A stretch of 64,000 bases of DNA, taken from Methylomonas montana. Lineage in GTDB: Bacteria; Pseudomonadota; Gammaproteobacteria; Methylococcales; Methylomonadaceae. This document shows, piece after piece, positions 43,377 through 52,579 of the stretch. Under the pieces are notes generated by a model that worked only from the letters and a program-made list of their open reading frames with translations, was not told where the DNA came from and searched no databases. A program made the position numbers and the translations under genes. The stretch's first letter is position 1, and every line of letters starts with the position of its first letter. The stretch spans positions 186,001 through 250,000 of the forward strand of contig NZ_CP129884.1 in assembly GCF_030490285.1 (NCBI RefSeq), in the 5' to 3' direction.

Positions 43377-44372
43377 TCATTTAATTAAATCCAGCGGACT
43401 GGTCACGCCTTTACCGCCTTTGTTGAGGACGTGGGTGTAAATCATGGTAGTCGCCACATCGCTGTGGCCGAGCAATTCCTGCACGGTACGAATGTCGTAA
43501 CCGGCTTGCAATATATGGGTCGCAAAAGAATGGCGCAGGGTATGCGGCGAAGTCGGTTTGACAATGCCCGCCGCCGCGGCCGCTTTTTTGACATAGCGCT
43601 GCACCTGCTTTTCATCGACATGGTGGCGGCGTTCGACCTTGGAACGCGGATCGACGGAATAATTTGCCGCTGCAAACACATATTGCCAACCCCATTCCCT
43701 TGCCGCGTTGGGATATTTGACCGCCAGCGCGTCGGGCAACCAGACATCGACTTTCCCCAAGCGCAAATCCTCGTCGTGCCAAGACTTGCGCAGCGCCAGT
43801 TGCGTCCGCATCGGCTCCAACAAGCTATCCGGCAACATCGTTACGCGGTCTTTGCCGCCCTTGCCGTCGCGAACCACAATCTCCTTGCGGGATAACTCCA
43901 CATCCTTGACCCGCAAACGAACCGCTTCCATCAATCGCATGCCGGTGCCGTAAAGCAAGCGAATGAGGAGGCCTATGGGCGGCGGCGCCGATTCCGCGTG
44001 TTTGAGCAGTTGCTGTACTTCGGCCGTGGTCAACACCACCGGCAATCTGCGCGGCTTTTTCGAGCGCTCGAAGCCGTCCAACCAAGGCAATTGCACCGCT
44101 AGCACGTCGCGATACAAAAACAGAATGGCCGACAAAGCCTGATTTTGCGTGGAACTGGAGACATGCCGCTCGGTTGCCAGATAGGTCAAGAACCGTTCGA
44201 CTTCGGCCGCGCCCATCTCTGTCGGATGACGCTTGCCGTTAAACAAAATAAATTGCTTAATCCACGAGACGTAGGTATCCTCGGTACTCAGGCTGTAGTG
44301 CTTGAAACGAATTTTATCGCGCACCTGATCCAGTAGTTTTTTAGGCGGCGCCGATGTCGTATTTGTTTCCAT
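43377..44372 (-). CDS. intI: Integron integrase IntI
   Basis: A 331-residue tyrosine recombinase. Catalytic residues are R146 ([10 protein letters not shown]), K171 region (DGKGGKDR), H277 and R280 (SPHTLRHSF), H303 ([10 protein letters not shown]) and Y312 (MIYTHVLN); the R/H/R/Y positions equal those of IntI1. Residues 215-233 ([19 protein letters not shown]) are the extra helix patch that distinguishes integron integrases from other Xer-like recombinases and lets them bind folded attC. It recombines attC with attI. The frame is intact, so the integron may be active. It is transcribed away from the array, the common arrangement, with attI just upstream of its start. Confidence 0.97.
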
Positions 44373-44482
44373 AACATGTCCCGTTTGCCCGAGCCAATTC
44401 GTTTACAAACAATAACTTGCCATCATGAAAAAAGGATTATACGACATTATGCCCTGGATTATAGGACAAGTGATGTCGTATA
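44354..44482. repeat. Three copies of a 9-bp motif around the intI start and attI
   Basis: ATGTCGTAT occurs at 44354-44362 (inside the first codons of intI) and again at 44473-44481. Its reverse complement ATACGACAT occurs at 44439-44447. The last two form a 10-base inverted repeat (TATACGACAT at 44438-44447 with ATGTCGTATA at 44473-44482) around a 25-base spacer. They may be integrase-binding repeats of attI or an operator for intI. Confidence 0.6.
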
Positions 44483-44495
44483 CATTACGTTGGGC
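44430..44495 (+). other. attI-like insertion site
   Basis: GTTGGGC at 44489-44495 fits the GTTRRRY core and is the last core before the first cassette gene. The region upstream has no attC-like R'' box or long palindrome, as expected for attI rather than attC. An inverted repeat around TATACGACAT lies just 5' of it. Recombination should occur between G44489 and T44490. The outer boundary is not determined. Confidence 0.6.
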
Positions 44496-44534
44496 AATGC
44501 AGACTATGCTGACTCAATCTCGGGAGGGAACAAA

Positions 44535-45374
44535 ATGAAAGACATCGCGAATTCGTTTGGTGTAGCTGCTTGTGGCCTTGTTACTTCCGTTTTGACGGCG
44601 CTCGCCGTTGTTGTTATGTCGAGAATGACCGGGTTCGATTTTTTCACATTCAGCATATGGGTCGTAGTACCCGTTGGTGCGCTACTAACAGGGTTCGCCG
44701 CAGCCTCCGGCTATTATTTCGGTAGCCTGTATTTTCATAAGCGGGCGGGCTTGTCGTTGCTGGCCCAAATGATTGTTATCGCCGGGCTTACACAACTCCT
44801 GATCTACTACATGGGCTATAGCACGCTTGTGCTCAACGACGGTCGACGAGTATCCGACTTTATTCCGTTTGGACAGTATCTCGACATCTCACTCACATCG
44901 GCGCACTACAGCATCGGTCGCGCCATGACGGACACCGGCGAGGTTGGTTCGTTTGGCTATTGGCTCGCTGCCTTCCAGTTCGTCGGGTTCCTCGTCGGGG
45001 GTCTCAGCGTGTATGGCTTCCTCGCGACGAAACCAGTCTGCGAGAAATGCAACCTGTATCTTCGCCCGCTCTCCAAACGTGAGAAAACCTTTTCCGATGG
45101 AGATTCGGCCTCGCCCTACTACGATGCATTATTCGAGCATCCAGTCGACGGCCCAGAGTTCGCGGCATTGATTCGTTCCGAGGAAAAGGCAAAAGCCGAA
45201 AAAGGAGTCGTCCTCGTCAAAACGGTTCTCCATGGTTGTCCGAAATGCAAGTCGCAACTGATCGAGGAGAAAGTTCAAGTCCACAACGGAAGTGAGTGGA
45301 AAGATGCCGACAAACTCAATCGCCGCGTCACCATCCCGGATGGGGTAGACCTGCTCAGCATTTTCAGGCCATAA
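44535..45374 (+). CDS. Cassette gene: four-helix membrane protein with C-terminal zinc ribbon
   Basis: A 279-residue protein. An excellent GGGAGGG ribosome box precedes the ATG at 44535; a longer frame from 44376 crosses attI and is not used. Hydrophobic helices lie at about residues 6-28 (GVAACGLVTSVLTALAVVVM), 32-55, 65-83 and 135-155. The C-terminal part has a C-x2-C (VCEKCNL) and a second C-x2-C (GCPKCKSQL) about 65 residues later, a zinc-ribbon pattern. It is the first gene of the first cassette and ends directly before a rhomboid protease start. No named family recognised. Confidence 0.75.
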   Translation: MKDIANSFGVAACGLVTSVLTALAVVVMSRMTGFDFFTFSIWVVVPVGALLTGFAAASGYYFGSLYFHKRAGLSLLAQMIVIAGLTQLLIYYMGYSTLVLNDGRRVSDFIPFGQYLDISLTSAHYSIGRAMTDTGEVGSFGYWLAAFQFVGFLVGGLSVYGFLATKPVCEKCNLYLRPLSKREKTFSDGDSASPYYDALFEHPVDGPEFAALIRSEEKAKAEKGVVLVKTVLHGCPKCKSQLIEEKVQVHNGSEWKDADKLNRRVTIPDGVDLLSIFRP

Positions 45375-46064
45375 ATGTTCCCCTACCGCGACAACTTAGT
45401 GGTGGGTGGCCGTGCGTGGGCCGTACTCGCTCTCGTGGCCATCCTGTTGCTTATCAATCTTCCGCTATTCTTTGTGGGCTCGTGGCATGCAGCGGCCATG
45501 ACTGCCTTAGCGTTCTTCCCCCTGCGATTTTCCCTACACCCGTTTGTCGAGTCTTACACGCTCGTCACGGCTTCCATCCTGCACGGAGACGTCTTCCACC
45601 TCGCCGGAAATTGTCTCTTTCTCGTTGTGTTTGGTCGAACGTTGGAAAGACTGTTCGGCCCGCGACTCTTGCTTGGACTGTTCCCCGCCCTCGGCATCGC
45701 AGGTTTTCTTCTACACTGGGCGTTCTTTCCTGACTCACCCGTCCCCGTCGTCGGTTCTTCTGGAGCCATCGCTGCCCTCATGGGAGCCTACCTTCCGCTG
45801 TTCCCCGAAGCGCGGATTCGCATGGTGGTTTTCTTCGGTTGGTTCTGGAAGAGGTTCACTGTTCCGGCTTGGGTATTTCTTCCCTATTGGGGTAGCCTGC
45901 AATTGATCTCCCTCGCCCTTGGCTCACAGGACGGTGTGGCGTACGCCGTCCATGCTGGCAGTTTCGCGGCCGGCACCCTCGGCGCCATCGTGTGGAAAAC
46001 ATCCTACCCTTTGGCTGAGGAAAGGCTCACAGCATTCACCGGCACCTCGTTCGAGAAGGCTTGA
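45375..46064 (+). CDS. Cassette gene: rhomboid-family intramembrane serine protease
   Basis: A 229-residue protein with six or so hydrophobic helices. The rhomboid active site is complete: HLAGN (H75, N79), GSSGA with the catalytic S129 in VPVVGSSGAIAALMG, and H193 in YAVHAGSFAAG. Rhomboids cut transmembrane substrates. Its ATG follows the upstream stop with no gap, so it is co-translated with the zinc-ribbon membrane protein, a candidate substrate or regulator. The stop precedes the cassette attC. Rhomboids are rare cassette cargo. Confidence 0.88.
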   Translation: MFPYRDNLVVGGRAWAVLALVAILLLINLPLFFVGSWHAAAMTALAFFPLRFSLHPFVESYTLVTASILHGDVFHLAGNCLFLVVFGRTLERLFGPRLLLGLFPALGIAGFLLHWAFFPDSPVPVVGSSGAIAALMGAYLPLFPEARIRMVVFFGWFWKRFTVPAWVFLPYWGSLQLISLALGSQDGVAYAVHAGSFAAGTLGAIVWKTSYPLAEERLTAFTGTSFEKA

Positions 46065-46087
46065 CGTGTTGTGTATCTAAGCCATTT

Positions 46088-46156
46088 GCCCAACCCATCA
46101 ATCCACCGGACGCTGCGCGATAAAGCCGCGCAGCGCCGGTCACCTCTACGTTAGGC
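46088..46156 (+). repeat. attC site 1
   Basis: R'' GCCCAAC (46088-46094) and R' GTTAGGC (46150-46156) bound 69 bases. The centre reads CGGACGCTGCGCG, a short loop, then CGCGCAGCGCCGG, giving a long stem. Nearly identical centres recur in attC 6, 9 and 11. Confidence 0.9.
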
Positions 46157-46444
46157 ATGAATATGGATGTGCGTTCACTTGTTGTACATCTTGAATCACC
46201 AGTATCGAATTACGTCTCAACTGAAGCTGGTGCACGTGACGTTGTTCTCGCTGGGCTCAATTGGCCAACTGAGTATTGGGCGGCTTTAGCTGTAGGCTGG
46301 TTGGAGCAAGGCGTGCCGGTTGACGCTGAAATACTTTCAGTGCTCAATTTGCTGGTTGAAAATAAACATTACTCGCAAGCTATTCGCCACAGGGCGTTTG
46401 CAATAGTCCGGCGTTATGAAAAAGGGGGGAGTGTAAATGCCTAA
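46157..46444 (+). CDS. Cassette gene: 95-residue protein of unknown function
   Basis: A small soluble protein beginning MNMDVRSLVVHLESPVSNYV with a WPTEYWAALAVGWLEQG stretch and a basic C-terminal helix (HRAFAIVRRYEK). The ATG is the first base after R' of attC 1, leaving no room for a ribosome site, and the TAA stop lies within R'' of attC 2. This fit between both sites supports it being the real cassette gene. No family recognised. Confidence 0.7.
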   Translation: MNMDVRSLVVHLESPVSNYVSTEAGARDVVLAGLNWPTEYWAALAVGWLEQGVPVDAEILSVLNLLVENKHYSQAIRHRAFAIVRRYEKGGSVNA

Positions 46445-46498
46445 CCTTGCAGTCAAGAGGGACGCGCCTTCGGCGCGCCCCTTACTTTCACGTTAGGC
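46439..46498 (+). repeat. attC site 2
   Basis: R'' GCCTAAC (46439-46445) and R' GTTAGGC (46492-46498), 60 bases. The stem centre is GGACGCGCC, a TTC loop, then GGCGCGCCCC. It contains the stop codon of the preceding gene. Confidence 0.9.
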
Positions 46499-46501
46499 CC
46501 T

Positions 46502-46810
46502 ATGAATTACACACTCGACAACGGAGAAGATTTGCACCGGGAGTTTCCCGAAACTTTCTATCTTCCTACTCGCGAGGCGCGCGAGGCATTATTGCCCGGC
46601 GAAATAGTTAAGGTAATTTTCCGTTTCTCTATCGGGGATGAAGTGCACGTTGAGCGCATGTGGGTTTGTGTTCAGTCAAGAGCTGAGGGTGGATACATCG
46701 GGTTACTCGACAATGACCCCTACTGCACAAAAGAGCTTCAGTCAGGTGCTTCAGTAGCTTTCGGCCCAGAACATGTCATCCAAATCTATGAGCAACCAGC
46801 CAAGGCCTAA
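46502..46810 (+). CDS. Cassette gene: DUF2314-like protein
   Basis: A 102-residue protein. RMWVCVQSRAEGGYIGLLDN followed by DPYCTKELQSGASVAF and EHVIQI resembles the DUF2314 pattern (ERMWV, G-LDNDP, G-x-V-F). DUF2314 proteins are often found in integrons and near toxin-immunity loci; activity unknown. The start is four bases after attC 2; the stop overlaps R'' of attC 3. Confidence 0.65.
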   Translation: MNYTLDNGEDLHREFPETFYLPTREAREALLPGEIVKVIFRFSIGDEVHVERMWVCVQSRAEGGYIGLLDNDPYCTKELQSGASVAFGPEHVIQIYEQPAKA

Positions 46811-46891
46811 CATTGTGGTCAAGGCCGCTGCGGCCTTCGGCCTCCGCTGGACGTCCCGCAAGCGGGCCGCACCTTACCCAAAACGTTAGCC
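46805..46891 (+). repeat. attC site 3
   Basis: R'' GCCTAAC (46805-46811) and R' GTTAGCC (46885-46891), 87 bases, with a GC-rich imperfect palindrome (AAGGCCGCTGCGGCCTTCGG) in the left arm. The R' ends GCC rather than GGC, a one-base variant. Confidence 0.8.
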
Positions 46892-46895
46892 ATAT

Positions 46896-47150
46896 ATGGA
46901 CGAAACTTACATTACCATCGAATACCTTCGAGAAATTTTGGCCAAGTGCGGAAGTACAACACCTGGACCGTGGGTGTCCTTCATTGAAGGTCGCGATCAT
47001 GACAGCGGTTCAAGTTTTATTCGCACCGCAGGAAATGACATAGAGCTTTCAGGCGCAACTGATGCCGACCAAGACTTCATGGCAAACGCCAAACAAGATA
47101 TACCCGCTTTGGTCGCGGAGATAGTAAGGCTTAAGGGGTGGTCTCTGTGA
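46896..47150 (+). CDS. Cassette gene: 84-residue PGPW-motif protein
   Basis: MDETYITIEYLREILAKCGS is followed by TPGPWVSFIEGRDHDSGSSF and an acidic C-terminal part (DADQDFMANAKQDIPALVAE). The TPGPW and D-F-x-A-x-A-x-x-DIP-x-L pattern recurs in small cassette and phage-associated proteins of unknown role. The start is five bases after attC 3. Confidence 0.65.
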   Translation: MDETYITIEYLREILAKCGSTTPGPWVSFIEGRDHDSGSSFIRTAGNDIELSGATDADQDFMANAKQDIPALVAEIVRLKGWSL

Positions 47151-47163
47151 CTTTTCAGCGTTT

Positions 47164-47226
47164 GGCTAACCCAGCGCTCAAGTGGGACGGTCGCTATCGC
47201 GCCCGCCCCTTAGCTTTACGTTAGGT
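47164..47226 (+). repeat. attC site 4
   Basis: R'' GGCTAAC (47164-47170; one base off RYYYAAC) and R' GTTAGGT (47220-47226), 63 bases, with GGACGGTCGCTATCGCGCC as the central hairpin. Confidence 0.8.
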
Positions 47227-47236
47227 TACAACCGCC

Positions 47237-47563
47237 ATGAATACCTATGCAATTCAGCTCGTACTGCATTACCAGGATACTTCGCCAGATGACACGCGGT
47301 TTGCCGGTTTTCTGAAAGACCTCCACGGACTAGCCGAGCGGCATGGCATCTCCTTCGATGACTATCAATCGTTTCGGCTCAGCGGTGAGGATTACAAAAT
47401 CAGGTCATGTCACCAATGTGGGCATTTAACAGTCAATCGAGAAGATGTTCGGGATGGTATCGAAAATATCCTGCCCGACTTCTGGTTTTATGTTCGTCGT
47501 GGAAAAGTCGCGGATGACATTGCATTCTGTGAATTTTGCGAGCATTCAACAAATGTCACCTAA
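47237..47563 (+). CDS. Cassette gene: 108-residue double-CxxC protein
   Basis: A small protein beginning MNTYAIQLVLHYQDTSPDDT with two C-x2-C pairs (SCHQCGH near residue 60 and CEFCEH near 99) that could bind one zinc. The middle is acidic and helical. Start is 11 bases after attC 4; the stop lies inside R'' of attC 5. No family recognised. Confidence 0.65.
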   Translation: MNTYAIQLVLHYQDTSPDDTRFAGFLKDLHGLAERHGISFDDYQSFRLSGEDYKIRSCHQCGHLTVNREDVRDGIENILPDFWFYVRRGKVADDIAFCEFCEHSTNVT

Positions 47564-47646
47564 CATGGCGCTCAACCGGAGCGCGGTCATAATGCGGTTT
47601 TATTTTTCAGCTTTCCGGGCCGCGCCCGGTTAGCTCTACATTGGGC
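47558..47646 (+). repeat. attC site 5 with altered R' core
   Basis: R'' ACCTAAC (47558-47564). The R' reads ATTGGGC (47640-47646), so the G next to the crossover is an A. The right arm CGGTTAGCTCTAC matches attC 6 and 9. Recombination at this R' may be impaired. Confidence 0.7.
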
Positions 47647-47775
47647 GTCTAAACATCATGCCGCGTAGAAAACGACTCCGGAGCGTGTGTCACAGCATTG
47701 CCCACCATGCAGTGAGCGGCCTGTCCTGTGTCCATCCGCACGTCATGCGCGCCTGCCGCAATGCGGGCGTTAGCT
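47647..47775 (+). other. ORF-less cassette or degenerate attC stretch
   Basis: Between attC 5 and the next gene, 129 bases end in another GTTAGCT core (47769-47775) preceded by the palindrome GCCTGCCGCAATGCGGGC. No plausible gene fits. The open frame crossing it (from 47658) lacks a good start context, so I begin the gene after the core. Confidence 0.5.
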
Positions 47776-47777
47776 GC

Positions 47778-48098
47778 ATGCAAGTCAATTTACTTTTAGC
47801 CGACCCTTGCCCTCTTCAGTTCGCTGAAATCGAGCCCTTGAGGTCGTCACTGAAAAGCCTACGCGAGAAATTTGAAACCATTTTGGCCTCCGAAGGGTTT
47901 TCCGTATCTGATCTCTCGCTCGCCACTCTTTGTTTCACGCCTGACCCAGGCAAGGATGATTACTGCACCGTCTGCCATGCGACCCTCCAAAGCAAAGATC
48001 AAGAGCCTGTGGAGTACATCGTGAACTATCTTGGGCAAACACTATCTGCCCAACCCGTCCCTGAGCTAGTACGTTATGTTGCAGGGAGAATCGCATGA
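47778..48098 (+). CDS. Cassette gene: 106-residue protein of unknown function
   Basis: Starts MQVNLLLADPCPLQFAEIEP just after the GTTAGCT core and ends AGRIA. A helical N-terminal half is followed by DDYCTVCHATLQSKDQEP. No known family. Its TGA overlaps the ATG of the next gene (ATGA), so it is the first gene of a two-gene cassette. Confidence 0.6.
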   Translation: MQVNLLLADPCPLQFAEIEPLRSSLKSLREKFETILASEGFSVSDLSLATLCFTPDPGKDDYCTVCHATLQSKDQEPVEYIVNYLGQTLSAQPVPELVRYVAGRIA

Positions 48099-48412
48099 GC
48101 CTTGAAATGCAGGTCTTTGCACCGTCGGCAGACGATTCGCTAATCCCCCGATGGGTTGAACGTCTCAACGGCCTGGGAATGCGCTGCGAAATTCACCCCA
48201 CATTTTCATTCCAGACCCACACGGGGTTTCTTCCATTCAAAGTGGAAATCGAGAAGCCGCATCACAAGGAGCTTCTTGGAAGATCATTCCTCACAGGCTT
48301 TGAGTTCTACATGCGGGAATTCGACCTTGCTCAGGAACTCGATGCAGTTCGTCCCAAACCAACTTTCTTCGACAGGCTCAAAGGCAAGAAAGCAGAGCCG
48401 CTCTTCTTCTGA
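48095..48412 (+). CDS. Cassette gene: 105-residue protein of unknown function
   Basis: A small protein beginning MSLEMQVFAPSADDSLIPRW with GFLPFKVEIEKPHHKELLGR and a basic C terminus (FFDRLKGKKAEPLFF). Coupled by ATGA to the gene before. The stop is two bases before the left end of the IS element, so a changed C terminus cannot be excluded. No family recognised; the pairing with the upstream gene suggests a two-component function such as toxin-immunity, but this is only inference. Confidence 0.6.
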   Translation: MSLEMQVFAPSADDSLIPRWVERLNGLGMRCEIHPTFSFQTHTGFLPFKVEIEKPHHKELLGRSFLTGFEFYMREFDLAQELDAVRPKPTFFDRLKGKKAEPLFF

Positions 48413-48444: not shown

Positions 48445-48473
48445 CAGATTTTATACTGTCAGTGGAGGTGACC

Positions 48474-48788
48474 ATGAAAAACGAGAATAAACACAACCGT
48501 CCTAAATACAGTTTGGAATTTAGGCAAGATGCTGCCAAGCTGGTTCTGGAAAAAGGTTACAGTCAACAGCAGGCTGCGGATCATCTGGGCGTATCGCTAA
48601 GCGCAATGGGACGCTGGGTTCGTGCGGAACGCAAGCCCTCTGTCATGGGTTCGGTAACGAAAAAAATCAGCGTGACGTTGGGTGAGCATGACGAATTGAT
48701 TCGCTTGCGCAAGGAAAATGAACAGTTGCGGATGGAGCGCGAAATATTAAAAAAGGCGGCCGTCTTCTTTGCGAAAGAAACCGAATAA
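48474..48788 (+). CDS. IS3-family transposase OrfA
   Basis: A 104-residue protein starting MKNENKHNRPKYSLEFRQDA after a GGAGG box. It has the helix-turn-helix AADHLGVSLSAMGRWVRAER and a leucine-zipper-like tail (ENEQLRMEREILKKAA). The slippery heptamer AAAAAAG (48749-48755, read A AAA AAG) near the end allows a -1 shift into orfB, giving a fused transposase of about 393 residues. Confidence 0.9.
   Translation: MKNENKHNRPKYSLEFRQDAAKLVLEKGYSQQQAADHLGVSLSAMGRWVRAERKPSVMGSVTKKISVTLGEHDELIRLRKENEQLRMEREILKKAAVFFAKETE
48749..48755 (+). promoter_or_regulatory. -1 programmed frameshift site
   Basis: AAAAAAG in the frame TTA AAA AAG of orfA, the usual IS3-family slippery heptamer. A -1 shift continues KKGGRLLCERNRIKYGFIRE into orfB, matching the expected fused transposase linker. 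Confidence 0.8.
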
Positions 48789-48826
48789 AGTACGGGTTTA
48801 TTCGAGAGCAAGAGAAGACGTATCCA

Positions 48827-49654
48827 GTGACCGTGCTGTGTCGAGTGATGCAGGTGAGTACCAGCGCCTATTACGATTGGTTAAAAGCCCCGAAAGACAG
48901 CGATAAAGATCAACAAGATCGAAAAATCGCCGAAACAGCCAAGCAGATTTTTATCGACAATAAGCAGTGCTTTGGTTCGCGTCGCCTAGCCGATCGTTTG
49001 CAAAAACAGGGGATTACTGCCGGTCGCTTTAAAACGCGGCGGATCATGCGGGAGTTGAAGTTAAAAGTTCGCTACCCCAAACGATTTAAAGTGACCACGG
49101 ACAGCAACCACAATGAGGCCATATCACCCAATCGGCTGGACCGCCAATTCAAGGTCGCTCAGCCGAATCAAGTGTGGACGACGGATATTACCTATGTCTG
49201 GACGCTACAGGGCTGGCTTTATGTCGCGGTCGTGATCGATCTGTTCTCCCGGCAAGTGGTGGGCTGGGCGATTGACGACCACATACGAACTTCGCTCTGT
49301 GTCAACGCCTTACAAATGGCCTTCTGGCGTCGTAAACCGTCGCCTGGTCTGCTGCATCACTCGGATCGTGGTAGTCAGTATGCGAGTCGGGAATATCGCC
49401 AACATCTGGCCGTGATGCGCATGGAGCAAAGCATGAGCCGAAAAGGCAATTGCTGGGACAATTCGCCGACGGAACGCTTTTTCCGTAGCTTGAAGCATGA
49501 ACAGCTCAACTACGAAAAATTCAAAACCCAAGAGGCGGCAAAACTGAGCGTGATCGACTATTTGGCTTTTTACAACGGTCGTCGATCGCACTCAACATTG
49601 GGCTATCAATCCCCGATCGAATTCGAGCGGGAATTTTATAGAAACGCTGCCTGA
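48827..49654 (+). CDS. IS3-family transposase OrfB (DDE integrase domain)
   Basis: A 275-residue catalytic half, in the -1 frame of orfA and normally made as the fused protein. The N-terminal HTH_21-like part has CFGSRRLADRLQKQGI, followed by the rve core with the three catalytic acids in TTDITYV, HHSDRGSQY and NSPTERFFRSLK; the last two are about 35 residues apart. It also keeps the YNGRRSHSTLGYQSP tail. Intact. Confidence 0.92.
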   Translation: MTVLCRVMQVSTSAYYDWLKAPKDSDKDQQDRKIAETAKQIFIDNKQCFGSRRLADRLQKQGITAGRFKTRRIMRELKLKVRYPKRFKVTTDSNHNEAISPNRLDRQFKVAQPNQVWTTDITYVWTLQGWLYVAVVIDLFSRQVVGWAIDDHIRTSLCVNALQMAFWRRKPSPGLLHHSDRGSQYASREYRQHLAVMRMEQSMSRKGNCWDNSPTERFFRSLKHEQLNYEKFKTQEAAKLSVIDYLAFYNGRRSHSTLGYQSPIEFEREFYRNAA

Positions 49655-49750: not shown

Positions 49751-49837
49751 ACATAACATGGCGCTCAACCTCGCTCCCTTCGGTCGCTGGACGCTGCGCG
49801 ATAAAGCCGCGCAGCGCCGGTTAGCTCTACGTTAGGC
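49751..49837 (+). repeat. attC site 6
   Basis: R'' ACATAAC (49751-49757; one mismatch) and R' GTTAGGC (49831-49837), 87 bases. The centre and right arm are nearly identical to attC 1, 9 and 11. It is the first attC after the IS element and probably belonged to the interrupted cassette. Confidence 0.85.
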
Positions 49838-49850
49838 GCATAGGATCCCG

Positions 49851-50189
49851 ATGTACTCCGTAGCGATCAACGCAGGCACGAGCGACAGCGGAGCGGCGTA
49901 CTTCTTCGTCAAGTTGAACAGCCCGGATTGTGAGTTCAACGTGATGGTGTCGGAGCTCGAGCTTGAGCGGCTTCGCTCGGTCGGCGACGCACGTTGGCTC
50001 GCACGCCAATCCGTCGCCGCCGGCAAGTGTCTCGGCAGCTCCGCGTTCTGGTCCTGCCAAGATGGCCGCTTGACGGTGCTAGTTGGCCCTGACGACGAAG
50101 CGTGGGAGGTTTGCTTTTCGGCGCCTGAAGCGCTCGTCAATGAGCTTTTGCAGGAGATCGCACGTGCGCGAGCCAACTGGCCCCAATAG
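49851..50189 (+). CDS. Cassette gene: 112-residue protein of unknown function
   Basis: Starts MYSVAINAGTSDSGAAYFFV, has ELELERLRSVGDARWLARQS in the middle and ends ARANWPQ. Predominantly beta then helical. It starts 13 bases after attC 6. No family recognised. Confidence 0.65.
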   Translation: MYSVAINAGTSDSGAAYFFVKLNSPDCEFNVMVSELELERLRSVGDARWLARQSVAAGKCLGSSAFWSCQDGRLTVLVGPDDEAWEVCFSAPEALVNELLQEIARARANWPQ

Positions 50190-50563: not shown

Positions 50564-50644
50564 CCACGCCATGAACTCGGGCAGTGTGGAGCGGCGCGAA
50601 AAATATGCGCCGCTCCACACTGCCGGTTATGACTGCCGTTGGGC
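50558..50644 (+). repeat. attC site 8 with a perfect 17-bp stem
   Basis: R'' CCCTAAC (50558-50564) and R' GTTGGGC (50638-50644), 87 bases. GCAGTGTGGAGCGGCGC (50581-50597) and its exact reverse complement (50607-50623) form a 17-base perfect stem, longer and more regular than in the other sites. Confidence 0.85.
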
Positions 50645-50687: not shown

Positions 50688-51671
50688 GTGAAAGCAATCG
50701 TCTTTGAAACCTATGGGTCGACCGAGGTTCTTCGCATGAGGGACGTTGAGAAGCCGTTGCCCAAGGACAACGAAGTACTGGTAAGAGTCCATGCCGCATC
50801 CGTGAATGCTGCTGACTGGCGGATGCTGAGGGCCGATCCATTTCTGGTTCGCTTTTACGCGGGGCTCTTGAAGCCGACAAAATTCCAAACCCTCGGTGCG
50901 GACATCGCCGGGCGGGTTGAGGCGGTGGGCAAGAATGTCCACCAGTTTCAACCGGGAGATGAGGTGTTCGGGGATGTATTCGCAAGTGGCTTTGGCGGTT
51001 TTGCCGAATATAAATGCGCTCGCGAAAGTGAGTTGGTTTTGAAACCGGCCAACATTTCCTTTGAGGAGGCGGCAGCCGTGCCGTTGGCTGCACTCACCGC
51101 TTTGCATGGTCTGCGCGACAAGGGGCGGATACAGGCGGGGCAAAAGGTATTGATCAATGGCGCTTCCGGTGGTGTCGGCACGTTTGCGGTACAGCTTGCC
51201 AAGTATTTCGGGGCTGAAGTCACCGCCGTGTGTAGCACGGGAAAGATTGATTTGGCGCTCTCTCTCGGCGCCGACCATGTGATTGACTACACGCAGGAGG
51301 ATTTCACCAGAAGCAGACGGCAATACGACCTGATCCTTGCGGTGAACGGAAATCGCTCCATCTTCGATTACAGGGGAGCCCTCACCCCCAGTGGTGCGTA
51401 TGTGATGGCCGGGGGCAGCACGGGGCAGCTATTTCAAGCCCTGCTGCTGGGGCCTTGGATTTCCCTGATTGGGAAGCAGAAAATGGGAGCGCTGACCTCG
51501 ACGCCAAACCAGAAGGATTTGCTGTTCATGAAGGCACTTCTGGAATCCGGCAAGATAAAGCCCATTATCGATAGGCATTACCCGCTGAGCGAGGTATCCA
51601 AGGCGATCCGCTACGTTGAAGAAGGACATGCCAAGGGGAAAGTAGCAATAATTTTGGAGTGTAGTGAATGA
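50688..51671 (+). CDS. Cassette gene: medium-chain NAD(P)H-dependent oxidoreductase
   Basis: A 327-residue MDR-family protein of the quinone oxidoreductase/zeta-crystallin-like group. It has VLVRVHAASVNAADWRMLRA, LGADIAGRVEAVGKNVHQF, PGDEVFGDV, the Rossmann motif VLINGASGGVGTFAVQLAK and a C-terminal GKVAIIL. It lacks the structural-zinc cysteines of classical alcohol dehydrogenases. The start is a GTG with an AGAGGAAA box, so it carries its own ribosome site. It is the largest single-gene cassette here. The substrate is unknown. Confidence 0.88.
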   Translation: MKAIVFETYGSTEVLRMRDVEKPLPKDNEVLVRVHAASVNAADWRMLRADPFLVRFYAGLLKPTKFQTLGADIAGRVEAVGKNVHQFQPGDEVFGDVFASGFGGFAEYKCARESELVLKPANISFEEAAAVPLAALTALHGLRDKGRIQAGQKVLINGASGGVGTFAVQLAKYFGAEVTAVCSTGKIDLALSLGADHVIDYTQEDFTRSRRQYDLILAVNGNRSIFDYRGALTPSGAYVMAGGSTGQLFQALLLGPWISLIGKQKMGALTSTPNQKDLLFMKALLESGKIKPIIDRHYPLSEVSKAIRYVEEGHAKGKVAIILECSE

Positions 51672-51722
51672 ACCTGGGAGTGCTTGCTCACGCATGCAAC
51701 TATCTGAAACTCAAACGGCCTT

Positions 51723-51792
51723 GCCCAACCCGGCAGTCCACACGGACGCTGCGCGATAAATCCGCGCAGCGCCGGTTAGCTCTACGTTAGGG
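51723..51792 (+). repeat. attC site 9
   Basis: R'' GCCCAAC (51723-51729) and R' GTTAGGG (51786-51792), 70 bases. Centre nearly identical to attC 1 with one change (ATAAATCC for ATAAAGCC). Confidence 0.9.
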
Positions 51793-51811
51793 TTCTCACT
51801 CTTTGCTGCGT

Positions 51812-52234
51812 ATGTCTTTCAATCAATCTCTCGGTTTAGTGTCTTTGGTAGTGCGCGACTACGACGAAGCTCTGTCGTTCTTTGTCGGGAAGCTCGGTTT
51901 TACTCTGGTAGAAGATACTCCTGTGCCGGAGCAAAATAAAAGGTGGGTCGTCGTAAAACCGAGGGGTAGTCAAGGGGCTTGTCTTCTCTTGGCACAAGCG
52001 TCTACGCCGCGTCAAGCCGAGGATATCGGAAACCAAACAGGTGGCCGTGTCTTCTTGTTCCTATACACGGACAACTTCTGGCAAGACTATGAAAACTATA
52101 AAGGTAAGGGTGTCGAGTTCATTCGCTCCCCGGAAAACCAAGCTCATGGCATAGTTGCGGTATTCAAGGACTTATGCGGTAATTCATGGGATCTCATACA
52201 ACCCAACAACAACAACAGGAGTTGGCAACAGTGA
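51812..52234 (+). CDS. Cassette gene: VOC/glyoxalase-fold protein
   Basis: A 140-residue protein from the ATG at 51812 (an upstream TTG is in frame). LGLVSLVVRDYDEALSFFVG and the paired second half (VFLFLYTDNFWQDYENYKGK; VAVFKDLCGNSWDLIQP) are the two betaalphabetabetabeta units of the VOC fold. Such cassette proteins include antibiotic-resistance and detoxification enzymes, but no substrate can be assigned. The TGA overlaps a GTG of the next frame. Confidence 0.8.
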   Translation: MSFNQSLGLVSLVVRDYDEALSFFVGKLGFTLVEDTPVPEQNKRWVVVKPRGSQGACLLLAQASTPRQAEDIGNQTGGRVFLFLYTDNFWQDYENYKGKGVEFIRSPENQAHGIVAVFKDLCGNSWDLIQPNNNNRSWQQ

Positions 52235-52510: not shown

Positions 52511-52579
52511 ACTAAACTCTGCGGTCAATCGGACGCTACGCGATAAAGCCGCGCAATGCCGGTTAGCTCTACGCTAGGC
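52511..52579 (+). repeat. attC site 11 with altered R' core
   Basis: R'' ACTAAAC (52511-52517) and R' GCTAGGC (52573-52579), 69 bases. The conserved GTT is GCT. The centre copies attC 1 with two changes in the stem. Confidence 0.7.

What the first reader, a model, noticed from the sequence alone, without database searches (positions are those of the whole stretch)
44535..46064. First cassette pairs a rhomboid protease with a zinc-ribbon membrane protein
The attI-proximal cassette carries two genes with zero intergenic distance: a 279-residue four-helix protein with two C-x2-C pairs and a complete rhomboid protease (S129/H193). Rhomboids are unusual integron cargo. The membrane partner could be its substrate, chaperone or activity controller, and the pair could form a membrane-quality-control or phage-defence module. 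The attI-proximal position favours expression.
Basis: partly seen in the sequence, partly recalled or inferred. Interest (0 to 1): 0.65.

Follow-up and report, generated by a model that had tools for sequence, protein, structure and literature searches.

The report
Integron cassette with rhomboid and orphan protein
A mobile gene cassette in a bacterium with a methane- or ammonia-oxidising enzyme carries a normal-looking membrane-cutting protease directly behind a rare, unclassified membrane protein; they are probably made together, but no second example of the pair was found, so a shared function is only a guess.

Summary
Next to an integron integrase lies a complete first cassette (44490-46150) with matching core sites. 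It holds P1 (279 aa: four membrane helices, then a domain with two CxxC pairs) and, with zero gap, P2, a rhomboid with S129/H193 and H75/N79. P1 reaches no Pfam or NCBIfam cut-off, has no PADLOC match and no convincing PHROGs or fold match. Relatives found: Xanthomonas floridensis (61%), Hyphomonas polymorpha (52%) and broken remnants in 16 Pseudomonas plasmid records. Codon positions against X. floridensis indicate purifying selection.

A conserved pair is not supported: the one P1 relative with readable DNA downstream has no rhomboid, and none of 29 rhomboid loci holds P1. That second test is weak, because P1 is rare everywhere. No defence family matched. Best reading: a mobile two-gene unit in which P2 is an active protease and P1 recruits or regulates it from the cytosolic side, a separate-gene counterpart of metal-binding domains fused to some rhomboids. 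The anatomy is secure; the functional link is about 40% likely. Two unrelated genes sharing a cassette is nearly as likely.

The parts
43377..44372 (-). integron integrase intI
   Evidence: TIGR02249 465.8 bits, cut-off 265
44373..44489 (.). probable attI region: direct repeat GGATTATA(C/G)GACA at 44434-44446 and 44456-44468; perfect 10-bp inverted repeat 44438-44447 / 44473-44482
   Evidence: the repeat finder; attI role inferred from position between intI and the first core site
44490..46150 (+). first gene cassette (from core GTTGGGC at 44489-44495 to attC R')
   Evidence: R'' GCCCAAC at 46088 is the exact reverse complement of the first core site
44522..44528 (+). GGGAGGG, probable ribosome-binding site of P1
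   Evidence: read from sequence; inference
44535..45374 (+). P1: 279-aa four-helix membrane protein with a Cys4 domain, no known family
   Evidence: relatives; codon-position test
45027..45371 (+). P1 C-terminal domain (residues 165-279) with C169/C172 and C235/C238, possible zinc site
   Evidence: AlphaFold2 pLDDT 82.2, pTM 0.75 from three sequences; no convincing fold match
45375..46064 (+). P2: 229-aa rhomboid intramembrane serine protease, S129/H193
   Evidence: PF01694 E 1.6e-21; alignment A2
46088..46156 (+). attC of cassette 1
   Evidence: bottom-strand fold -21.3 with DNA parameters; 87.5% identical over 72 bases to the attC of a blaOXA-2 family cassette

Best explanation
This is a complete integron gene cassette that moves two membrane-protein genes as one unit. 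Shown: two intact genes with zero gap, one attC, the rhomboid's catalytic and oxyanion residues, and P1's conserved cysteines. Inferred: both are made from one message, with translation of P2 coupled to the end of P1; P2 is an active rhomboid that cuts membrane proteins; P1's Cys4 domain lies in the cytosol and binds zinc. Most likely mechanism: P1 sits beside P2 in the membrane and steers or regulates what P2 cuts. It would be a separate-gene counterpart of the cytosolic metal-binding or zinc-finger domains that are fused to some bacterial rhomboids, the output being turnover of unwanted membrane proteins.
For: One cassette with matching core sites. Zero-gap TAA|ATG, with P1 ending where its Xanthomonas relative ends (FRP versus FRG), so P2 is not joined to a broken P1. 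P2 keeps S129, H193, H75 and N79. P1's cysteines are invariant in 3 of 3 sequences. Codon-position identities of P1 against X. floridensis over 278 codons are 0.68, 0.78 and 0.30, with 24 of 93 fourfold sites equal, i.e. purifying selection on the protein. An even number of helices and a K/R-rich stretch after the last one put P1's Cys domain in the cytosol, where a rhomboid's N-terminus also lies (inference). Precedent: the YqgP cytosolic N-terminal domain binds Mn/Zn and facilitates cleavage of MgtE (PMC7231995, abstract and passages); Streptomyces family A rhomboids in many cases carry an N-terminal cytoplasmic zinc finger (PMC4467639, passages); GlpG/Rhom7 act on orphan membrane subunits (PMC7232013, passages).
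Against: No second example of the pair was found. X. floridensis P1 has no rhomboid downstream. The 29 rhomboid loci lack P1, and P1 is absent from all sampled genomes except known carriers. A control case warns against reading adjacency as function: in L021 a zinc-ribbon protein lies directly upstream of a rhomboid, yet 29 of 30 loci of that protein lack a rhomboid. Zinc binding, co-transcription, protease activity and interaction are untested. No consensus promoter in 44000-46200. The Hyphomonas copy runs into a contig end and the Pseudomonas copies are broken, so they do not inform on the partner.
Confidence: 0.4

Rival explanations
1. Two genes without a shared function were captured in one cassette. 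P1 is an accessory gene of plasmids and other mobile DNA; P2 is a stray rhomboid whose start happened to lie at P1's stop. Each acts alone, or neither matters to the host.
For: P1 occurs without a rhomboid in X. floridensis. In the Pseudomonas plasmid loci opened, P1 remnants directly follow a helix-turn-helix gene in 2 (L006, L047) and a VapC-type gene in 1 (L007); in L046 the record starts just before. Adjacency of a zinc-ribbon protein and a rhomboid in L021 is not conserved (1 of 30), so such neighbours do arise without being kept. GC3 of P1 and P2 differs modestly, 61.1 versus 66.5.
Against: An exact zero-gap junction at P1's natural end, with both products membrane proteins and both frames intact, would be coincidence.
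Confidence: 0.36
2. P1 is the dedicated substrate of P2: the rhomboid cuts one of P1's outward-entering helices and so releases or destroys the cytosolic Cys4 domain, as a regulated signal.
For: By the predicted topology, helices 2 and 4 run out-to-in, the usual orientation for a rhomboid substrate (recalled). Helix 2 has an invariant proline (P46) and helix 4 is glycine-rich; helix-destabilising residues are a feature of known substrates (PMC7232013 passages).
Against: X. floridensis P1 keeps the same residues without a rhomboid next to it. No cleavage was tested. P1 is polytopic.
Confidence: 0.12
3. The cassette is an anti-phage or toxin-antitoxin-like module.
For: Integron cassettes of other bacteria include defence and toxin-antitoxin genes (recalled; no passage read here). 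The Hyphomonas P1 relative lies about 2.2 kb from an AbiEi/AbiEii pair (PF13338 34.4 bits, cut-off 25; PF08843 128.2 bits, cut-off 22.5), one locus only.
Against: No PADLOC match for either protein; no phage record with P1 and no viral contig with it.
Confidence: 0.05

Closest known systems
Rhomboid intramembrane serine proteases (Pfam PF01694; nearest sampled relatives 34-46% identical)
   Same: Ser/His dyad, GxSG and HxxxN motifs, MFPxRD start
   Different: carried by an integron cassette, shorter C-terminal tail, long divergent branch in a tree, preceded by P1
Bacillus subtilis YqgP and zinc-finger (family A) Streptomyces rhomboids
   Same: cytosolic metal-binding or zinc-finger domain associated with a rhomboid core (PMC7231995, PMC4467639; passages)
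   Different: there the domain is part of the protease itself; here it would be on a separate four-helix protein, with no sequence relation shown
Integron gene cassettes, e.g. the blaOXA-2 cassette
   Same: attC 87.5% identical over 72 bases; integron integrase next to the array
   Different: two genes and a different cargo

Membership tests
Integron gene cassette | integron-type integrase next to the array | tested here: met
   TIGR02249 465.8 bits, cut-off 265
Integron gene cassette | attC with complementary core sites; first core matches the cassette's own R'' | tested here: met
   GTTGGGC 44489 versus GCCCAAC 46088; foldable 69-base attC
Integron gene cassette | excision and integration by IntI | not testable with these tools
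   needs a recombination assay
Rhomboid protease | Pfam Rhomboid domain above cut-off | tested here: met
   77.4 bits, cut-off 22.6
Rhomboid protease | catalytic Ser in GxSG and His in a later core helix | tested here: met
   S129 and H193 invariant in 8 of 8
Rhomboid protease | six transmembrane helices | tested here: inconclusive
   a 19-residue hydropathy cut of 1.5 marks four regions; no structure was predicted for P2; the rest follows from the alignment
Rhomboid protease | proteolytic activity | not testable with these tools
   -
Rhombosortase (TIGR03902) | score above cut-off | tested here: not met
   18.9 bits, cut-off 84
GlpG (TIGR04239) | score above cut-off | tested here: not met
   14 bits, cut-off 250
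Zinc-ribbon families (PF23470, PF14690) | score above gathering cut-off | tested here: not met
   P1 14.1 versus 26; Xanthomonas relative 18.8 versus 25.5
Zinc-ribbon protein in the wide sense | binds zinc through four cysteines | not testable with these tools
   two CxxC conserved in 3 of 3 sequences; binding needs an assay
Known anti-phage defence systems | match to a PADLOC model | tested here: not met
   no model matched either protein at E 1

The most novel reading that the evidence does not exclude
P1 and P2 form a mobile, two-gene metal-responsive rhomboid: the Cys4 domain of a new membrane-protein family senses zinc (or its loss) in the cytosol and switches or directs intramembrane cleavage, so that a proteolytic membrane-stress response can be picked up as one cassette.
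Probability: 0.1. Interest if true: 0.62.

Novelty: new member of a known kind. Interest (0 to 1): 0.33.

Why it matters
What bacterial rhomboids do is often unclear. If P1 really works with P2, a small portable pair would give a simple system for studying how a rhomboid is aimed or regulated. P1 also marks a rare, selected and mobile membrane-protein family for which these searches found no named family. If the pair is accidental, the finding is an ordinary rhomboid in an ordinary cassette next to an orphan gene.

Tried and rejected
Known families for P1: Pfam and NCBIfam hits all under cut-off, PADLOC none, PHROGs best E 0.15, PDB sequences best E 0.82 for the whole profile and 0.19 for the C-terminal profile. 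Folds: whole P1 model, best Foldseek E 0.21 and best VIA Z 6.0 (8frn_G, LptB2FG, 140 aligned, rmsd 4.6, within the range of common helical arrangements); C-terminal domain alone, best Foldseek E 0.74 in PDB and 0.13 in viral models, best VIA Z 4.4 (7s6h_B, 72 aligned, rmsd 3.4). None is trusted, and no listed fold is claimed to be absent.

More P1 relatives: beyond the two loci (343 stretches examined; exact octapeptide patterns, so close relatives only) and the 16 plasmid records, none in phages or viral contigs (74 stretches). In 61 relatives, 369 class, 247 family-of-Xanthomonas, 289 class-of-Hyphomonas and 398 phylum genomes the only match each time was the known carrier itself (the samples overlap in part). 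Pseudomonas genomes were not specifically sampled.

Neighbours of the rhomboid loci: one search listed upstream frames by length and CxxC count only; I identified four by Pfam: L013 aldehyde dehydrogenase, L015 RelA/SpoT, L021 sub-threshold zinc-ribbon hits (DUF1451 20.0 bits against 26.1), L011 a frame without a family that looks spurious. L021 looked like a parallel to P1-P2 (zinc-ribbon protein with a C-terminal hydrophobic stretch, rhomboid start 3 bases after its stop). One search found that protein in 133 of 149 genomes of the family; one search examined the 30 loci given (of the matches listed): a rhomboid lies within the flanks in 1 of 30, the starting genome itself. Rejected as a conserved pair.

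Placing P2 by tree: FastTree put it on a very long branch (1.38) with weak deep support; no conclusion on origin. I considered predicting P1-P2 as one chain by reading the TAA as Gln (translation only) and did not, since no paired alignment exists and both prediction jobs went to P1.

Literature: searches. Of the 11 papers holding 'rhomboid' and 'integron' I looked at passages in 3: a clam name, a plot symbol, and a phage-encoded rhomboid. Of the other 8 I saw titles and abstract starts only. A 2025 rhomboid review (PMC12615303) holds no 'integron', 'zinc' or 'operon', and a paper on Xanthomonas integrons (PMC12444791) no 'rhomboid'; term searches only.

Full report
Setting. The window lies at 186001-250000 of a 4.63-Mb single-contig genome that encodes a protein of the particulate methane/ammonia monooxygenase family (PF02461, 424 bits; 0 of 14 control genomes). 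That fits a methanotrophic gammaproteobacterium, but no tool names the organism. An integron integrase lies at 43377-44372 on the minus strand (TIGR02249, 465.8 bits). Between it and the first cassette are a 13-base direct repeat and a perfect 10-base inverted repeat, a plausible attI.

The cassette. The first core site GTTGGGC at 44489 is the exact reverse complement of the R'' site GCCCAAC at 46088, the left end of a 69-base attC that ends at 46156. The cassette is therefore 44490-46150 and holds two genes. In a plasmid search 99 records matched the cassette's DNA; none covers 80% of it, and the 20 listed match only the attC (4% of the query, beside blaOXA-2 family genes). Identity to one of these attCs is 87.5% over 72 bases, and to three other attCs of the same array 90% over 71, 96% over 49 and 88% over 50 bases.

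P1. Residues 1-165 form four hydrophobic helices; the remaining 115 residues form a domain with two CxxC pairs, predicted alone at pLDDT 82.2 and pTM 0.75 from only three sequences. The helix count and the K/R-rich stretch after the last helix place this domain in the cytosol (inference). No family library gives a match above cut-off and no fold match rises above background. Relatives: X. floridensis (61% identity, full length) and H. polymorpha (52%, cut by the contig end) in a scan of 84,980 species genomes that finds close relatives only; 16 of 72,556 plasmid records, all Pseudomonas, match P1 residues 1 to 86-88. In the three checked in detail (L006, L007, L047) the match is in two pieces in different frames, so these are broken remnants. 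In the four records opened (L006, L007, L046, L047) the remnant sits beside the traI relaxase gene; 7 of the 16 rows name a helix-turn-helix gene at the match. Codon-position identities against X. floridensis of 0.68, 0.78 and 0.30 indicate purifying selection. All five cysteines are invariant in the three sequences. P1 is thus a real, rare and apparently mobile gene; wider samples found it only in the known carriers.

P2. A standard rhomboid: PF01694 77.4 bits, with S129, H193, H75 and N79 conserved and an MFPxRD start. It is neither GlpG nor rhombosortase by NCBIfam cut-offs. In 398 phylum genomes 101 (own included) have a match at E 1e-8 or better; the 29 best outside the own genome are 34-46% identical, 21 of them in one unnamed family, f228. 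Named alphaproteobacterial plasmids are among the nearest, so f228 may be alphaproteobacterial (inference). In 61 near relatives, 33 of 36 other same-genus genomes have a match, all only 31-37% identical, like the own genome's second rhomboid (33%); the best order-level match is 43%. So no close copy of P2 was seen in the genus. L048-L052, the order-level rhomboid loci, have no P1 nearby either.

Is it a pair? For: one cassette, zero gap, P1 ending at its natural end, two membrane proteins. Against: the neighbour tests. With a P1 profile at maximum sensitivity, none of 29 rhomboid loci (L011-L039, about 1.5 kb each side) holds P1. No rhomboid lies in the X. floridensis stretches (7.4 and 11.9 kb, overlapping), the Hyphomonas 20 kb, or three Pseudomonas loci (best E 0.81, chance level). 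Of these only X. floridensis is fully informative, because the Hyphomonas gene meets the contig end and the Pseudomonas copies are broken. And since P1 is absent from the sampled genomes altogether, its absence beside their rhomboids is expected on rarity alone.

A parallel that failed. One of the 29 loci, L021, has a protein with several CxxC motifs and a C-terminal hydrophobic stretch ending 3 bases before its rhomboid (Pfam zinc-ribbon hits sub-threshold). If zinc-ribbon membrane proteins commonly travelled with rhomboids, this would support the pair. But the protein is widespread in that family (133 of 149 genomes), and 29 of the 30 loci examined have no rhomboid within the flanks. Adjacency of such proteins can arise without being kept.

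Mechanism. The best-supported step is that P2 is an active protease (residues intact; activity untested). That P1 steers or regulates it is inferred from the genetic coupling and from precedent: YqgP's cytosolic domain binds Mn/Zn and promotes cleavage of MgtE (PMC7231995; abstract and passages), Streptomyces family A rhomboids in many cases have N-terminal cytoplasmic zinc fingers (PMC4467639; passages), and GlpG/Rhom7 act on orphan membrane subunits (PMC7232013; passages). Here the Cys domain ends just before the rhomboid's start codon in the same frame, so the arrangement looks like such a protein cut in two; but no sequence relation between P1 and those domains was found or specifically tested, and P1 exists without a neighbouring rhomboid in X. 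floridensis. I give 0.4 to a functional link with P1 as partner, 0.12 to P1 as substrate, 0.36 to no link, 0.05 to defence.

Expression. The position next to attI is right, but a consensus scan found no sigma-70-like site in 44000-46200 (0 found, mean 1.2 in shuffles), so an integron promoter was not located.

Novelty. Rhomboids and cassettes are known kinds; I saw no description of the combination in the papers found, of which I read passages of three and listings of the rest. A mobile rhomboid is not without precedent: phage DLP3 encodes one (PMC7326821; passages), and P2 itself matches a phage family weakly (phrog_16931, E 3.8e-6). P1 is the more novel half.

Noticed in passing
46088-46156, about 49763-49837, about 51723-51792, about 52511-52579: Four attC sites of this array share a core (GGACGCT.CGCGATAAA) that is also that of blaOXA-2 family cassettes (87.5% over 72 bases for the first); an environmental source of that attC type may be visible here.
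   Followed up: partly
44434-44482: Probable attI holds a 13-base direct repeat spaced 22 bases and a perfect 10-base inverted repeat (TATACGACAT / ATGTCGTATA).
   Followed up: partly
46157-48412 and 49851-50189: The following cassette ORFs tested (seven) have no Pfam family above cut-off; 46502-46810 is just under cut-off for DUF2314 and 47237-47563 has two CxxC pairs.
   Followed up: partly
48462-49654: IS3-type transposase pair (HTH_Tnp_1 and rve domains) inserted within the cassette array.
   Followed up: no
50688-52234: Cassette region with a zinc-type alcohol dehydrogenase and a glyoxalase/bleomycin-resistance-fold protein.
   Followed up: no
50580-50624: Perfect 18-bp inverted repeat with a 9-base spacer, just before the alcohol dehydrogenase gene.
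   Followed up: no
L044:2917-8491: Near the Hyphomonas P1 relative, an AbiEi/AbiEii pair and an ORF with an NAD:arginine ADP-ribosyltransferase domain (PF01129, E 1.1e-11).
   Followed up: partly
L021 (reverse strand, frame 316-1497 and rhomboid 1501-2241 of the reverse complement): A zinc-ribbon protein with a C-terminal hydrophobic stretch lies 3 bases upstream of a rhomboid; widespread protein, but the adjacency was seen in 1 of 30 loci.
   Followed up: yes
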